From Pseudomonadales bacterium (GTDB lineage Bacteria; Pseudomonadota; Gammaproteobacteria; Pseudomonadales; Alcanivoracaceae), in the NCBI GenBank assembly GCA_022360555.1, contig JAKSCQ010000262.1, forward strand, positions 1-33,846: DNA of 33,846 bases, read 5' to 3'. Shown here one piece after another: positions 21,905 to 28,424 of the stretch (the stretch's first letter is position 1; each line of letters begins with the position of its first letter). The position numbers and the translations under genes were made by a program. The notes under the pieces were generated by a model. The model did no database searches. It worked only from the letters and a program-made list of their open reading frames with translations, and was not told the DNA's origin.

Positions 21905-22045
21905 CTACCTTTTCTTTGCGGTACGCTTAGCTTTAGCAAAAGCCTTATCTGTTGGAGCGCCTTTATCACCCTTCTTTCTCATCTTTTCACCGGATCCACC
22001 AGCAATTCTTTTTCTCTTGGCGTGAATGTTTTTATATAAGCTCAT
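21905..22045 (-). CDS. Small basic phage protein (DUF6321-like)
   Basis: A 46-residue very basic protein. The core NIHAKRKRIAGGSGEKMRKK followed by GDKGAPTDKAF matches a motif found in many short phage proteins encoded near structural or terminase genes (DUF6321-like). Function is unknown; the charge suggests nucleic-acid contact or virion packing. The ATG at 22045 overlaps the preceding stop by four bases (ATGA). The gene is very short but the conserved motif supports it. Confidence 0.75.
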   Translation of the reverse strand: MSLYKNIHAKRKRIAGGSGEKMRKKGDKGAPTDKAFAKAKRTAKKR

Positions 22046-22260
22046 TTCTTCACACTCCTTTTACCCTGGCATCCCCAAGCTCTTCGCCTGGCTTTGACTT
22101 TAGCAGTTCGCTTTTGACCGCTTGACCTTGCGCAATACGCATTTCCGCGCTTGGTTCCAGGGGAAGAAACCCTTCTGTGAGTCTTTCCCTCACTGTCTTT
22201 GTACTTAGTCCCATCAGCATACTTTCTATCTGCTTCAGCTTTCGTTAGTTTTTCAGACAT
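22042..22260 (-). CDS. Small basic protein with conserved KYADGTKYKD motif
   Basis: A 72-residue protein beginning MSEKLTKAEADRKYADGTKY and containing THRRVSSPGTKRGNAYCARS, then a Lys/Arg-rich tail with a Cys near the end. This pattern recurs in small proteins of many phages, usually next to DUF6321-like genes as here. The ATG at 22260 has GAAGGA almost adjacent. The frame continues upstream to a TTG at 22428 and there encodes a clear hydrophobic segment, so a longer 128-residue membrane-tethered form cannot be excluded. Function unknown. Confidence 0.65.
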   Translation of the reverse strand: MSEKLTKAEADRKYADGTKYKDSEGKTHRRVSSPGTKRGNAYCARSSGQKRTAKVKARRRAWGCQGKRSVKK

Positions 22261-22411
22261 TTCCTTCACCCAGATTAACATTACCGGGCTAAAGAATAAC
22301 ATTATAACACTTATGGGTACAGCCAAAAAGAAAACCCCAACATAAACTAATATATTGAGGTCTTCTGAAGCCTTACGAGAAAAGCAATACAAGGGATGTA
22401 AGGCAAGATAT

Positions 22412-22639
22412 TTATTCCACACTATCAAGTAGCTTGGTTCTTAGTACGGCATCTCTATTCTTGTGCAATCTATCGGCTTCCAGTGCCGCCTTGTCAGCCT
22501 GATTGTAAATTACACTATGCCACCTTTTTCCATCGTAGGTTTTAAAGACTGTCCCATTAAGGCTTTTCAGTATATACCCACGGTCGCCAGAGACTACATC
22601 AAAGGTATTCTCCTTGATCCAGTTGCGAATATCCTTCAT
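22412..22639 (-). CDS. Hypothetical protein
   Basis: A 75-residue mixed alpha/beta protein: MKDIRNWIKENTFDVVSGDR, a beta-like core GYILKSLNGTVFKTYDGKRW, then a charged C-terminal helix. I recognise no family. It follows the secreted Tyr/Asn-rich gene by four bases and precedes the small basic genes in the leader segment of the late operon. Confidence 0.55.
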   Translation of the reverse strand: MKDIRNWIKENTFDVVSGDRGYILKSLNGTVFKTYDGKRWHSVIYNQADKAALEADRLHKNRDAVLRTKLLDSVE

Positions 22640-22643
22640 AAGC

Positions 22644-22898
22644 TTAATACCCTAAGCGAAACTTATCATTATTGTACAATGTTCCATATCCATTATCTAT
22701 TCTATCAGGACGTTGCTGGATTTGCCGCTCGTATCTATCACGACGCTCATCTTCCTGCGTATATCTATCACCACCATATACCGGGCTGTTAGTATACCTA
22801 TCATAGTTACCACCTGAATTATAATCATAACGGTTATAGTTCTGGGCATGTGCTGGCATAGATACAACTATCACCAAAATCATTAAAACTATTTTCAT
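22644..22898 (-). CDS. Secreted Tyr/Asn/Arg-rich small protein
   Basis: An 84-residue protein with a textbook Sec signal peptide: MK, a hydrophobic core and a SMPAHA cleavage site before Gln20. The mature chain of about 65 residues is low complexity and rich in Tyr, Asn, Asp, Arg and Gly (NYNRYDYNSGGNYDRY), without hydrophobic core or Cys. It should reach the periplasm or beyond. Export at the start of the late operon could serve envelope modification or superinfection exclusion, but there is no recognised relative. An ATG at 22898 is used because the frame from 22903 stops at once. Confidence 0.65.
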   Translation of the reverse strand: MKIVLMILVIVVSMPAHAQNYNRYDYNSGGNYDRYTNSPVYGGDRYTQEDERRDRYERQIQQRPDRIDNGYGTLYNNDKFRLGY

Positions 22899-22904
22899 TT
22901 CATT

Positions 22905-23084
22905 TTACTCCTTATGTATCTTAAACACAGCTATATCTTTGTAGGCAACTCTGCCAGCTTCCCTTAAAACCATAGCCCTCGATAGCTTCTCAACAAACTT
23001 GTCTACAATAACCTTTCCGCATGAAAGCTTTATGTAGACCCTTTTACCCCTTTTGCACGAAAAGTGATTAGGTGTTCGCTTCAT
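22905..23084 (-). CDS. Small conserved-type phage protein (59 residues)
   Basis: A short basic beta-type protein beginning MKRTPNHFSCKRGKRVYIKL, then SCGKVIVDKFVEKL and GRVAYKDIAVFKIHKE. The pattern (MKRxPNHFSCKRGKRV, later a G-x-V-x-x-x-D-I stretch) resembles small unnamed phage proteins of similar length. Ribosome site AAGGAA precedes the ATG at good spacing. It is the first gene after the late promoter. Cys10 and Cys22 are the only cysteines. Confidence 0.65.
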   Translation of the reverse strand: MKRTPNHFSCKRGKRVYIKLSCGKVIVDKFVEKLSRAMVLREAGRVAYKDIAVFKIHKE

Positions 23085-23268
23085 AATTATTCCTTACGTA
23101 TCCCATGGGGTTAGCAAACCCATCAACCAACCCCACGAGAATTCACAAAATTCACTGGCAGCTTATTAAGTGCCACCCCACTACCACAGGGCGTCCAAAA
23201 CATAGCCCGCTAAAGCTATATGACACTTATTCAAATCCATAATACCTCAAGTTCCCAACCTGGAAACA
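23085..23268 (-). other. Leader of the late operon with stem-loops
   Basis: The 180 or so bases between the late promoter and the first late gene hold no convincing gene. The minus-strand RNA can form TGGCA/TGCCA (about 23173-23155) and GGGGTT/AACCCC stems close to the first ribosome site. A 19-codon frame (MDLNKCHIALAGYVLDALW) with GAGG four bases upstream is a possible leader peptide but is unsupported by anything else. Confidence 0.3.
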
Positions 23269-23303
23269 CCTATTATTATAACAATAACGTCAACACATAT
23301 CAA
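23268..23303 (-). promoter_or_regulatory. Strong sigma-70-like late promoter
   Basis: On the minus strand TTGATA (23303-23298) and a perfect TATAAT (23280-23275) are separated by exactly 17 bases, with expected start near 23268. It points into the terminase and structural operon. It is the best promoter in the hub and shows that host RNA polymerase can read the late genes, in line with the lack of a phage RNA polymerase. Confidence 0.7.
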
Positions 23304-23306
23304 CAC

Positions 23307-23329
23307 TTAATGTATGGTCGATACATTAA
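23307..23329. promoter_or_regulatory. 23-bp palindromic operator at the late promoter
   Basis: TTAATGTAT and its exact reverse complement ATACATTAA flank a 5-base centre (GGTCG). The palindrome ends four bases upstream of the late -35 box, a position used by activators that touch RNA polymerase or by repressors. The likely binder is a dimeric phage or host regulator. Confidence 0.6.
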
Positions 23330-23331
23330 AT

Positions 23332-23399
23332 AGCGCCATGCGAAGGAATCGAGCCTGCGCCCTTTGCCTTTTGAGGGGCAGGGCTTGCTCGACCTTCTT
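23332..23399 (-). other. tRNA-like fragment (T-arm and partial acceptor only)
   Basis: The minus strand contains GCAGG-CTCGATT-CCTTC, a plausible T-arm with one mismatch, then GCATGGC, whose TGGC can pair with GCCA 60 bases upstream. A D-arm and a regular 7-base anticodon loop are missing; a hairpin with CCTCAAAA in its loop stands in the anticodon position. This is a degenerate tRNA or a tRNA mimic at most. Confidence 0.2.
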
Positions 23400-23463
23400 T
23401 GGCTTGAGGGAATAATATAGGTAGTAAAGAGGGATAGTGGAGAAGTTTTATATATTTTTAACC

Positions 23464-23501
23464 CCCCGCAAGAAAAAGACGTATTTCTCCTTCTCGCTGG
23501 G
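23464..23501 (-). other. Imperfect long hairpin in the hub
   Basis: In the minus-strand RNA CCC-A-GCGAGAAGGAG pairs with CTTTTTCTTGC-G-GGG around an 8-base loop, 14 pairs with three G-U and one A-G mismatch. In the plus-strand RNA the three G-U positions would be A-C mismatches, so it is more stable on the minus strand. No U tract follows, so it is not a standard terminator. Confidence 0.4.
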
Positions 23502-23674
23502 AATGAATATTATAACCTTGTAAGCTTGCTGTAACTTAATACTTTTGCTGGCTGACTTCCGCTACTCCAGCGCCTACAGTTCAAAGTCGGGGGCATATAT
23601 CATCTAGGTTATCAAATGATACGTGCCTGCTAGTCATAGTTTCTTATGCTAGCACTTACTCCCTTTGCTAAAGA

Positions 23675-23861
23675 GAGTTAGTTAGGTGGGTGGGATTCAC
23701 AGCAGACATTAAGGCCCTTACCCACTATCGCGCCTAAGTATATTTCAACTTATGTGGCTGGCCTTAACGTGGGCTGGTTACCACAGTGTTTGCCAGTTAA
23801 CAACGCCATCGTCCATAGACTTTATGCATGGATACCCCCATGCTGGCCACCTAACTAACTC
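23675..23861. repeat. Exact 15-bp inverted repeat spanning 187 bp
   Basis: GAGTTAGTTAGGTGG at 23675-23689 has its exact reverse complement at 23847-23861. The enclosed 157 bases hold several shorter stems. The left arm overlaps by four bases an alternative local hairpin (23658-23678, ACTC-CTTT/AAAG-GAGT with a 3-base loop), so two exclusive folds are possible. The exact length-15 match across a gap is unlikely to be random in a region this size. Confidence 0.75.
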
Positions 23862-23991
23862 CCCTTATTCACCTGCCGGTCTTAGTCCCAGCGCTTTTCG
23901 TGCTTTAAATATATACAACACATATACAGCATTGAATATATTATCCCACACAGGGCGTCTCAGTGTTTTTTCGCTAATGCGTATTTTGTGC

Positions 23992-24026
23992 TTGGAAAAT
24001 TAACCAGAAATGGTATATTCAGATTA
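23992..24026 (+). promoter_or_regulatory. Extended -10 early promoter (rightward)
   Basis: TTGGAA (23992-23997) and TATATT (24014-24019) are 16 bases apart, with TGG directly before the -10. The start is expected near 24026. It reads through two terminator-like hairpins into the gene at 24163. A perfect 10-bp palindrome AGATTAATCT (24021-24030) covers the start and could be an operator. Confidence 0.55.
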
Positions 24027-24056
24027 ATCTTTTGGGCAAAAAAAGATTACCTTTTT
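24025..24056 (+). terminator. AT-rich hairpin just after the early promoter
   Basis: TAATCTTTT (24025-24033) pairs perfectly with AAAAGATTA (24041-24049) around a 7-base loop, followed by CC and five T. The stem is AT-rich, so termination would be weak. Its position at the very start of the transcript suggests attenuation. Confidence 0.4.
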
Positions 24057-24066
24057 AATGTACATG

Positions 24067-24106
24067 AAGCAACCCCTTTTTTTAATTAAATTGGGGTTGT
24101 TTTTTA
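24067..24106 (+). terminator. Rho-independent terminator upstream of first rightward gene
   Basis: AAGCAACCCC (24067-24076) pairs with GGGGTTGTTT (24093-24102, one G-U), with an inner AATT-rich loop, followed by TTTTATTTA. Only the rightward direction has the T tract. It lies about 56 bases before the start codon at 24163, so rightward RNA must either end here or read through. Confidence 0.8.
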
Positions 24107-24162
24107 TTTAGCTGCGTGCAACGATACTCCTACACACAAACACACACACTTAGGAGACACAT

Positions 24163-24525
24163 ATGTTTATTAAAATCTATGAGCCAGCAAAAGACACAAG
24201 CACAGACCTTGTATCAGGAAATTGGCATATATTCGAGAATGTAACAGCGTTAAAATTCAGCGCAAACCGCACAGAAATCAACAACCCAGAAGAATTAATG
24301 GAATGGAAGTACGCAAACTTCCCCATGGCTTACGGCGAAGTATGTGTTAATTGCGTTATCTGGGACTTTGGGTGCGAAGCACTGATAAGCAAGAGTGAAG
24401 GTACTAACGTAACTGCAATCTCATTCAAGGGCACACAAGACCCAATCTGGCATTTCATCACCATTGGTGACACAACAGCATATGTCTGCGACGACAACGG
24501 CAAAACAATGCAGGTGATAAATTAA
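24163..24525 (+). CDS. Hypothetical protein, first rightward gene
   Basis: A 120-residue soluble protein, mainly beta-type, with three Cys in the middle (VCVNCVIWDFGCEAL). Ribosome site TAGGAG is seven bases before the ATG. I recognise no family. It stands alone between the regulatory hub and the convergent leftward operon, downstream of an attenuated-looking promoter. That suggests a very early or separately controlled host-takeover protein, an inference from position only. Confidence 0.65.
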   Translation: MFIKIYEPAKDTSTDLVSGNWHIFENVTALKFSANRTEINNPEELMEWKYANFPMAYGEVCVNCVIWDFGCEALISKSEGTNVTAISFKGTQDPIWHFITIGDTTAYVCDDNGKTMQVIN

Positions 24526-24531
24526 ACCTAT

Positions 24532-24930
24532 CTACTGGTAATGCTCCTGAACGTACTCACGGTGCTTCTCACCCAGATATACCTTCGGCTGCCCAGTCTC
24601 TAACACCTTATTGCGAATAAAATATAAATACTTGCCCACACTATCGAACTGATAGGGTACCGGCAATGATGATGCATCATAAAACGGCGTAAAGTATTTA
24701 TTACGCTGGTTATAGAGTACCCCTATCTGGTATTTTAAGACGCTTCTAACGCACGCTTCCATTTCCGAGGTACGGGTATAGCCTGTTGACGCAAAGAAGT
24801 CTCTAAGGCCCGCTTCTGCCTCTTTATGGATATCTTCATCCATCTTTTCTAGTTCTTTAACTTGTGATTCTAACAAGTGGTAGTTTACTTGCTGCTCACC
24901 ACTTCTTTCATATCGCTTAAGCATTGTCAT
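24532..24930 (-). CDS. Hypothetical protein at the end of leftward operon
   Basis: A 132-residue helical, charged protein. Residues about 15-50 form a likely coiled coil (LLESQVKELEKMDEDIHKEA) and the rest includes SEMEACVRSVLKYQIGVLYN. The ATG overlaps the preceding stop by four bases (ATGA), with AAGGAG thirteen bases upstream. It converges with the rightward gene at only six bases distance, without a terminator between them, so their messages must overlap. Function unknown. Confidence 0.6.
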   Translation of the reverse strand: MTMLKRYERSGEQQVNYHLLESQVKELEKMDEDIHKEAEAGLRDFFASTGYTRTSEMEACVRSVLKYQIGVLYNQRNKYFTPFYDASSLPVPYQFDSVGKYLYFIRNKVLETGQPKVYLGEKHREYVQEHYQ

Positions 24931-25214
24931 CCCTTTACACTCCTTAATTTTACGACGTTATTTTTTTTCGACACACTACCTACACCCACCAACCAGGGAA
25001 TAACATAATTATGCCAATATTTGTGATCCTTGTGTTTGTAAAGAAATGGGAGGGTGTTATGCACATCCACCCTCCTTTTTCCATACCCATTTTCCAAGAA
25101 GACCAAGGTAACAGTATGCGTTTTATTGTCGTGGCTGCCTTCGTACCACTTTATCTGCTCAACCTTAACCACCTTAAATTTTCGCCTTTTAAGAAAGTTC
25201 TTGATGAACATCAT
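24927..25214 (-). CDS. Small basic protein, unknown
   Basis: A 95-residue basic protein starting MMFIKNFLKRRKFKVVKVEQ, with beta-type stretches (THTVTLVFLENGYGKRRVDV) and aromatic residues. The ATG at 25214 is chosen because it forms an ATGA overlap with the upstream stop and has AAGGAG nine bases upstream; a longer frame from 25247 has its Shine-Dalgarno nearly touching the start. The basic N-terminus would suit nucleic-acid binding, but no domain is recognised. Confidence 0.55.
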   Translation of the reverse strand: MMFIKNFLKRRKFKVVKVEQIKWYEGSHDNKTHTVTLVFLENGYGKRRVDVHNTLPFLYKHKDHKYWHNYVIPWLVGVGSVSKKNNVVKLRSVKG

Positions 25215-26489: not shown

Positions 26490-26516
26490 AATATTTCCCT
26501 TTTTGTGTTTTTTGTG

Positions 26517-26552
26517 TTGACAGGTATTAACGTAACGGGTATTCTCCTAATT
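26517..26552 (+). promoter_or_regulatory. Sigma-70-like promoter for rightward recombination operon
   Basis: Perfect -35 TTGACA (26517-26522), 17-base spacer, -10 TATTCT (26540-26545, 4 of 6), expected start near 26552. On the opposite strand another TTGACA (26557-26552) faces the leftward operon, but its best -10 (TACGTT) is poor. Confidence 0.6.
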
Positions 26553-26570
26553 GTCAATACGAAATTGACA
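26552..26570. promoter_or_regulatory. 19-bp palindromic operator candidate
   Basis: TGTCAAT and its exact reverse complement ATTGACA are separated by ACGAA. The site covers the expected transcription start of the rightward promoter and contains the leftward TTGACA. A bound dimer would block both directions; the adjacent ribbon-helix-helix protein is the natural candidate. Confidence 0.5.
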
Positions 26571-26593
26571 TCAACCAAGTAGGAGTAACAACG

Positions 26594-27102: not shown

Positions 27103-27777
27103 ATGAGTGACTACGATTTTACCGAAGACGTTATTTATAACCTGAATCAGCCGCTAGAGCAAAAACATATTAAACAGCGTGAAGGCAGCTTTGGAAAGCA
27201 ATTAAGTTACATTGAGACGCATCATGCCATAAGGGAGGCAAACCGCATATTTGGCTTTGATGGCTGGTCTTGTGTAACGAAAAAGCTAGAGGCAATACAC
27301 CCACCTTATGAGTATCAAGACCGTAAGGGGAATAAGAAATTTGTCACCGCCTATCTCGCGACCGTTGAAGTTCGGGCTGGTGGCGTGTCTCGCGAGGGAT
27401 CTGGTTATGGCAACGGCATAGCCAGCTCCCCACAAGATACATATGAGCTTGCACTGAAGGAGGCTGAGTCTGATGCGCTAAAGCGTGCGCTGAAGAACTT
27501 TGGCGATCCGTTTGGTTTGGCCTTGTATGATAAGGAGCAAGCGCATGTAACTAGCCAAAACGTAATGAGTTACGATGAGGTGCAAGATTTGCAAGATCAG
27601 TGGCTAAGCCAAGCAAAGCAAGAGCTGTCTGATATGGCATCTTTGGAAGAAGCGGAAGCTTGGTGGGATAAGTATGAACGACCACGAAAGCGTATGGCAA
27701 AGAACAGGCCGGATTTATACAAAAAGCTTGAAGATTGTTACGAAGAAATCAACAAGCAACTAAAGGAGCACAGTTAA
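27103..27777 (+). CDS. Rad52/Rad22-family single-strand annealing protein
   Basis: A 224-residue recombinase of the Rad52 superfamily. Visible core: SYIETHHAIREANRIFGFDG, W-S-x-x-x-T-K, a beta hairpin TAYLATVEVRAGGVSREGSG, YGNGIA, and the helix ELALKEAESDALKRALKNFG followed by DPFGLALYD. These are the family hallmarks, including the GxG and the E-x-x-A-L-K helix. It anneals complementary single strands, giving recombination and probably the concatemers needed by a headful terminase. The C-terminal third is helical and charged. Its stop overlaps the next start (TAATG). Confidence 0.92.
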   Translation: MSDYDFTEDVIYNLNQPLEQKHIKQREGSFGKQLSYIETHHAIREANRIFGFDGWSCVTKKLEAIHPPYEYQDRKGNKKFVTAYLATVEVRAGGVSREGSGYGNGIASSPQDTYELALKEAESDALKRALKNFGDPFGLALYDKEQAHVTSQNVMSYDEVQDLQDQWLSQAKQELSDMASLEEAEAWWDKYERPRKRMAKNRPDLYKKLEDCYEEINKQLKEHS

Positions 27778-28424
27778 TGGATAAAAAATCTAACACGGGT
27801 AACTGGAACACTGGTGACAGGAATGCGGGTGACTGGAACACTGGTAACTGGAACACTGGTGACGGGAACACGGGTGGCGGGAACGCGGGTTACAGGAACA
27901 CGGGTAACTGGAACACTGGTAACTGGAACACTGGTGACAGGAATGCGGGTTACAGGAACACGGGTAACTGGAATACGGGTGACAGGAATACGGGTTACTG
28001 CAATAGTGTCACGCCAGAGGATTGCCTTATCTTTAATAAACCGGCCAAAATATCGGATTGGGAAAATGCTAAAAAACCAAGATGGATGTATGTTGATTTG
28101 ACGGAATGGATTGATGCAAAAGATATGTCCAGCAAAGAAAAGGAAGCATATCCATCATACATCACAACTGGAGGCTATCTGAAGTGCTATAGCAGCCTAA
28201 AGCATGCCTATGTTGATGCCTGGGAAAAGGCAAGTGATGGGGATAGGGAGCTAACAAAACGCTTGCCTAACTTTGATCCAGATGTGTTTGAAGAGGTGTT
28301 TGGGTTCAATCCATTCAAGAAAGCAACAAAAACAATCACCATCGACGGAAAGAATATTGAAATAAGCGAGGATTCTTTTAATGAATTCAAGAAACAATTT
28401 ACGGAAGGAAATACAAATGATTAA
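27777..28424 (+). CDS. Pentapeptide-repeat protein with conserved phage C-terminal domain
   Basis: A 215-residue protein. Residues 6-75 are 14 tandem pentapeptides of the form N-(T/A)-G-x-x (NTGNW, NTGDR, NAGDW and so on), a pattern like the N-x-G repeats of mycobacterial PPE proteins and expected to form a right-handed beta helix. Residues 76-215 (NSVTPEDCLIFNKPAKISDW onward) form a domain found after such repeats in other phage proteins, of unknown role. The ATG at 27777 shares bases with the Rad52-like stop; a longer frame upstream is inside that gene. The protein is translated within the recombination operon. Pentapeptide proteins can mimic DNA, so a gyrase- or nuclease-directed role is conceivable but not shown. 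Confidence 0.85.
   Translation: MDKKSNTGNWNTGDRNAGDWNTGNWNTGDGNTGGGNAGYRNTGNWNTGNWNTGDRNAGYRNTGNWNTGDRNTGYCNSVTPEDCLIFNKPAKISDWENAKKPRWMYVDLTEWIDAKDMSSKEKEAYPSYITTGGYLKCYSSLKHAYVDAWEKASDGDRELTKRLPNFDPDVFEEVFGFNPFKKATKTITIDGKNIEISEDSFNEFKKQFTEGNTND
27792..28001 (+). repeat. 14 tandem 15-bp repeats with 60-bp superperiod
   Basis: Fourteen in-frame 15-bp units encode N-(T/A)-G-x-x. After two initial units, the Ala-containing variant returns every fourth unit (units 3, 7, 11), giving three 60-bp superunits, i.e. 20 residues each, which equals one coil of a pentapeptide beta helix. Units are nearly identical in DNA (AACACTGGTAACTGG type), showing recent duplication. Confidence 0.85.

What the first reader, a model, noticed from the sequence alone, without database searches (positions are those of the whole stretch)
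23085..24162. One-kilobase gene-free hub with dense secondary structure
About 1.08 kb lacks convincing genes in an otherwise tightly packed genome, and holds two promoters, a palindrome, multiple hairpins, possible pseudoknot pairs and terminators. Large structured RNAs such as GOLLD or ROOL are known in phages, but I cannot match this one to any; it may be a new RNA, an origin or a packaging element.
Basis: partly seen in the sequence, partly recalled or inferred. Interest (0 to 1): 0.75.

Follow-up and report, generated by a model that had tools for sequence, protein, structure and literature searches.

The report
Orphan structured phage RNA candidate
A gene-free kilobase just upstream of a phage's late genes holds one strong promoter and, beside it, about 550 bases that fold unusually well as RNA on one strand; it may be a new large phage RNA, but no relative was found that could prove it.

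Summary
The window is most likely a complete circular phage genome (about 33.84 kb) with HTVC010P-like gene order. 23085-24162 is its largest internal region without genes, and it is not uniform. 23085-23268: leader of the late transcript. 23275-23303: minus-strand promoter, the only 11-of-12 site in the genome. 23307-23329: a dyad just upstream of it. 23330-23875: folds far better than shuffles on the minus strand (z -6.7), only mildly on the plus strand (-2.9); 58 control windows go no lower than -4.1. 24066-24109: one good plus-strand terminator before gene 24163-24525. The core has no Rfam match even at E 5, no DNA match in phages, plasmids or family genomes, and a covariance model of it found nothing credible in 67 related loci, 293 order-level and 369 class-level genomes. 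Best reading: a leftward structured non-coding RNA, of a kind comparable with GOLLD or ROOL but not a member of either. Transcription is untested and covariation could not be tested, because no close relative of the phage is held.

The parts
23330..23875 (-). structured core: candidate non-coding RNA, read leftwards
   Evidence: z -6.70 on minus (100 shuffles) against -2.86 on plus (100 shuffles); 29 control windows per strand, lowest -4.12 and -3.35
23669..23867 (-). domain closed by a 21-bp stem (23847-23867 with 23669-23689), with an inner 11-bp stem (23760-23770 with 23706-23716)
   Evidence: inverted repeats I2 and I4; mean pair probabilities 0.97 and 0.99; 0 of 200 shuffles reach the best-stem score
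23592..23682 (-). chain of three hairpins (23654-23682, which competes with the outer part of the 21-bp stem; 23629-23653; 23592-23627)
   Evidence: 23580-23692: z -6.13 on minus, -2.31 on plus (200 shuffles each)
23461..23504 (-). 18-bp hairpin with one internal mismatch, G-U-rich on the minus strand only
   Evidence: -22.3 kcal/mol on minus, -12.3 on plus
23335..23403 (-). interrupted stem-loop near the 3' end of the core
   Evidence: helices of 4, 5, 6 and 5 pairs with probabilities 0.90-0.98
23307..23329 (.). 9-bp dyad with 5-nt centre, just upstream of the -35 box: probable regulator site
   Evidence: 1 match in the window, 0.03 expected
23275..23303 (-). probable late promoter TTGATA-17-TATAAT with TG before the -10 box; fires away from the core, towards terminase
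   Evidence: only 11-of-12 site in the genome
23085..23268 (-). presumed leader of the late transcript; holds a 19-aa mini-ORF at 23240-23181
   Evidence: position; folding only mild, z -2.38; mini-ORF
24066..24109 (+). intrinsic terminator in front of gene 24163-24525 (attenuator-like position)
   Evidence: stem followed by a T run; z -4.57

Best explanation
The core 23330-23875 is a structured non-coding RNA read leftwards (minus strand, the direction of the late genes). It lies upstream of the late promoter, which fires away from it, so the RNA must come from a start further right (a weak site at 23963-23935) or from read-through of the leftward genes 26489-24532. The phage then uses it as a stable folded RNA, either free or as a cis element on a leftward transcript that enters the late operon. 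The rest of the hub is ordinary control DNA: late promoter, dyad, leader, and one terminator before gene 24163-24525. Shown: absence of recognisable genes, strand-specific excess folding, uniqueness of the promoter and of the dyad. Inferred: transcription, direction, processing and role.
For: Minus-strand z -6.70 against -2.86 on the plus strand, outside the range of 58 control windows. Single hairpins are much more stable on the minus strand because their imperfect positions are G-U there. A strand-blind count of mismatches in inverted repeats of the core gives 9 G-U on minus and 1 on plus (6 other), against 143 and 122 (513 other) in control windows; by hand the chance is about 0.02. No coding signal.
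Against: One sequence only: no relative, hence no covariation. No good promoter for the RNA (the candidate is at chance level) and no intrinsic terminator at its 3' end. The syntenic gaps of 13 relatives are mostly unstructured. The 200-nt tiling does not single the hub out.
Confidence: 0.55

Rival explanations
1. Only a DNA control region: late promoter with regulator sites, divergent from gene 24163-24525; the inverted repeats are protein-binding sites or leftovers, and no RNA acts.
For: Unique strong promoter and dyad; in 9 of 11 HTVC010P-type phages the same gap carries short conserved DNA elements and most of these gaps are not unusually folded.
Against: Control sites need far less than 550 nt, and DNA-level repeats do not explain why the minus strand folds so much better than the plus strand.
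Confidence: 0.22
2. The structured RNA is a cis element of late transcription: a put- or Q-like antitermination signal that lets polymerase pass the terminator at 22366-22329 into the terminase operon.
For: Layout: late promoter, three small genes, a strong minus-strand terminator, then terminase; no Q-like protein recognised among 20 proteins scanned with PHROGs and 10 with Pfam.
Against: The core lies upstream of the late promoter, so only a transcript started further right could carry it; the leader proper is only mildly structured (z -2.38). put RNAs are far smaller (recalled).
Confidence: 0.13
3. Replication origin or packaging (pac/cos) site, with hairpins acting as DNA.
For: Position next to the terminase operon, and the gap lies at the ends of several pelagiphage records.
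Against: No iterons, no perfect DnaA box in the hub and no more boxes than chance would give in the window as a whole (47 against 38.1, reached by 7 of 100 shuffles). Strand asymmetry is not expected of DNA hairpins.
Confidence: 0.1

Closest known systems
GOLLD RNA (Rfam; passages of PMC12286853 seen)
   Same: Phage-borne, large, structured, without known function; expression reported to rise during phage lysis.
   Different: No model match at E 5; no tRNA in the window, whereas GOLLD often lies near tRNA islands; shorter (about 550 nt against often more than 800).
ROOL RNA (Rfam; passages of PMC12286853 seen)
   Same: Similar size (the 659-nt example), phage setting, no known function.
   Different: No model match; no tRNA neighbourhood; no evidence here of multimers or pseudoknots.
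Gap upstream of the late operon in HTVC010P-type pelagiphages
   Same: Same place in the same gene order: leftward late operon, gap, rightward block, leftward block, rightward recombination block (6 genomes seen whole).
   Different: Gap of 192-613 nt in 10 of 11 and 980 nt in HTVC010P (in five of them read only up to the record's end), A+T-rich, mostly not unusually folded; carries conserved short DNA elements (9 of 11) that the window lacks at that place.

Membership tests
GOLLD / ROOL | match to the family's covariance model | tested here: not met
   no Rfam family at gathering score in the window; at E 5 in 22900-24200 five unrelated weak matches far below their cut-offs
GOLLD / ROOL | often beside tRNA genes (a tendency, not a strict criterion) | tested here: not met
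   no tRNA or tmRNA in the window
GOLLD / ROOL | extensive structure supported by covariation | not testable with these tools
   no relative of the core found
GOLLD / ROOL | homo-multimeric cage | not testable with these tools
   needs cryo-EM or native gels
HTVC010P-type phage | gene order around the late operon | tested here: met
HTVC010P-type phage | close protein similarity | tested here: not met
   capsid protein 27-30% in the listed pelagiphage rows, tail tubular B 34-37%: a distant relative
Lambda-type late control (Q and late promoter) | late promoter upstream, with a terminator before the main late genes | tested here: met
   promoter 23303-23275, terminator 22366-22329
Lambda-type late control (Q and late promoter) | Q-like antiterminator protein encoded nearby | tested here: inconclusive
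   none recognised among 20 proteins scanned with PHROGs and 10 with Pfam; several neighbours match nothing

The most novel reading that the evidence does not exclude
A new family of large structured phage RNA, about 550 nt, encoded upstream of the terminase genes at the switch to late transcription and without tRNA neighbours; perhaps a free or multimeric RNA, or an RNA part of DNA packaging or of late control.
Probability: 0.35. Interest if true: 0.75.

Novelty: new variant of a known kind. Interest (0 to 1): 0.42.

Why it matters
Large structured phage RNAs are few and the functions of the best-known ones are poorly understood (passages). One at the late-gene switch of a 34-kb phage would be tractable: a small genome, one candidate transcript, and a clear neighbouring promoter to test against. 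At present it is a strong prediction from one sequence, no more.

Tried and rejected
Searches for relatives of the core that led nowhere: Rfam at gathering score and at E 5; blastn against phages and plasmids; DNA in 46 family genomes (own genome only) and in 18 related records (25 short matches at E 0.27 to 7.2 in 5 records, taken as noise); blastn with 7-base words against 126 of 130 held loci, four copies of the window left out (two matches at E 0.20); neighbour proteins 24532-24930 and 24163-24525 in viral contigs and 24163-24525 in phages; exact 17- and 16-base pieces of the core in viral contigs (3 and 11 contigs, none matched by the covariance model).

Covariance model R1 in 369 class-level genomes gave three matches outside the own genome, all rejected: one is a long G-rich inverted repeat with most of the model deleted, outside or at the edge of any ORF of 40 aa; the other two share CCATGSATAAAG but lie inside ORFs of 301 and 455 aa.

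Ideas dropped: tRNA-derived attachment site (no second copy in the own genome within 3 mismatches); a decayed gene (9 open frames match nothing in PHROGs or Pfam); a DnaA-box origin. Close relatives of the phage through terminase, portal or capsid protein: best 53% over part of terminase and 43% over nearly all of it, 39% for the capsid protein.

Full report
WHAT THE WINDOW IS. The two ends share 6 bases and the tail-fibre frame runs open across the joined ends, so the contig is most likely a complete circular phage genome; 6 bases alone would be weak, the open frame is the better argument. It is contig 178 of a 3.8-Mb bin. Virion genes (terminase, portal, capsid, tail, internal virion protein) lie on the minus strand at lower coordinates. 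The capsid protein's best matches are Manatee Spring phage MW202485 (39%) and HTVC010P-type pelagiphages (27-30% in the listed rows); tail tubular B matches pelagiphages at 34-37%. Gene order agrees with six HTVC010P-type genomes seen whole: leftward late operon, gap, rightward block, leftward block, rightward recombination block. The finding is that gap.

THE OBSERVATION. 23085-24162 is the largest internal gap (1,078 nt; next 582 and 341 nt). ORFs in it lack coding character, and nine open frames match nothing in PHROGs or Pfam. Promoter-like sites in 22000-25000 are at chance (8 found, 7.7 expected), with one exception: minus-strand TTGATA-17-TATAAT at 23303-23275 is the only 11-of-12 site in the genome. 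A perfect 9-bp dyad lies just upstream of it at 23307-23329 (one match, 0.03 expected). Terminator-like sites in 22000-25000 exceed chance (6 against 2.3), but only a weak one (23376-23390, +) is in the hub; a better one, with a larger loop, is at 24066-24109 on the plus strand. The strongest listed one lies outside, at 22366-22329 on the minus strand.

STRUCTURE AND STRAND. Folding 23300-24120 gave z -6.24 (minus) and -3.57 (plus) with 20 shuffles each. The signal sits in 23330-23875: minus z -6.70 (100 shuffles; -6.18 with 30), plus -2.86 (100 shuffles). In 29 control windows of the same length on each strand the mean z is near zero and the lowest values are -4.12 (minus) and -3.35 (plus) (15 shuffles each). 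Other parts of the hub are weak on the minus strand: 23870-24070 -1.61, 23085-23268 -2.38; within the core, 23400-23585 taken alone is also weak, -1.44. Main minus-strand helices: a 21-bp stem 23847-23867/23669-23689 enclosing an 11-bp stem 23760-23770/23706-23716; hairpins at 23629-23653 and 23592-23627; an 18-bp hairpin 23461-23504; an interrupted stem-loop 23335-23403. A further hairpin, 23654-23682, competes with the outer part of the 21-bp stem. The best-stem score (15) is above all of 200 shuffles of the hub (maximum 12). Several stems are longer on the minus strand because their imperfect positions are G-U there: the 18-bp hairpin has -22.3 against -12.3 kcal/mol, the stretch 23580-23692 z -6.13 against -2.31. 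A strand-blind count of mismatches in inverted repeats of the core gives 9 G-U on minus, 1 on plus, 6 other; in control windows 143, 122 and 513. By hand the bias has a chance of about 0.02: modest support for selection on a minus-strand RNA.

RESULTS AGAINST. A 200-nt tiling with 12 shuffles does not single out the hub: its lowest z is -3.45, 5 of 326 windows elsewhere fall below -3, and the lowest in the genome is a tandem-repeat gene at 27801-28000 (-8.86). No relative of the core was found in phages, plasmids, 46 family genomes, 18 related records, or with the covariance model in 67 of the loci then held, 14 loci with exact short pieces, 293 order-level genomes or 369 class-level genomes (three matches outside the own genome, rejected). 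The own genome is counted in both draws, and they overlap. A model made from one sequence reaches only fairly close relatives. So covariation could not be tested. The syntenic gaps of 13 relatives are mostly not structured: lowest late-strand values are Vibrio phage 1.182.O -4.61, HTVC034P -3.86, HTVC010P -2.72; the other ten lie between -1.24 and 1.02 (20 shuffles).

MECHANISM. The late promoter fires leftwards, away from the core, so the core is not its leader. A minus-strand RNA of the core must start further right: at a weak site (23963-23935, 9 of 12, chance level) or by read-through from the leftward genes 26489-24532. I see no intrinsic terminator at the core's 3' end; the dyad there lacks a T run. 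The RNA may therefore be cut from a longer transcript or continue into the late operon. I commit to a structured non-coding RNA (0.55) and leave open whether it acts free or in cis. The remaining hub is ordinary: late promoter, dyad for a regulator, leader with a 19-aa mini-ORF, and a terminator before gene 24163-24525 that could act as an attenuator.

COMPARISON. GOLLD and ROOL are the nearest known kinds by size and setting (passages of PMC12286853). Membership fails on the sequence-structure model, and the tRNA neighbourhood is missing. In pelagiphages the same gap carries a short conserved DNA element (ATACATGG or AGACCGG) in 9 of 11 genomes; the window hub has one 7-base match at another place, which I take as chance. 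Passages of the Skadi paper (PMC10504331) report sigma-70 promoters, no terminators, no phage RNA polymerase and no phage DNA polymerase in that phage; 'noncoding', 'non-coding' and 'intergenic' do not occur in its text. The five literature searches (listings with starts of abstracts seen) showed no paper recognisable as describing a structured RNA at this place; the main HTVC010P-type genomics paper (PMC8477408) is not held, so this is no proof of absence from print.

VERDICT. Real gene-free region, real one-sided folding signal, one real promoter and dyad, no known family, no relatives. A fair candidate for a new phage RNA, unproven.

Noticed in passing
window 1 and 33846: The ends share 6 bases and the tail-fibre frame continues across them: the contig is probably a complete circular phage genome sitting in a bacterial bin.
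   Followed up: yes
window 27792-28000: Array of 13.9 copies of a 15-base unit inside ORF 27735-28424 (NTGNW/NTGD-type repeats), with the lowest folding z of the genome.
   Followed up: partly
window 26515-26580: Plus-strand promoter-like site TTGACA-17-TATTCT (26517-26545, 10 of 12) next to an inverted repeat TTGTCAAT/ATTGACA seen by eye: possible divergent early promoters with an operator.
   Followed up: no
window 22042-22428: A strong minus-strand terminator (22366-22329) lies inside this ORF, whose codon score is non-coding (-0.04): the ORF start is probably wrong, and late transcription may be controlled here.
   Followed up: no
L115 (HTVC010P) 34637-34892 and 1-724: This 980-nt unannotated gap seems, by eye, to hold a small unannotated ORF followed by a terminator.
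   Followed up: no
L124 (Vibrio phage 1.182.O) 32936-33599: Gap after ninG with late-strand folding z -4.61 against -1.37 on the other strand: could hold a structured RNA or missed small genes.
   Followed up: no
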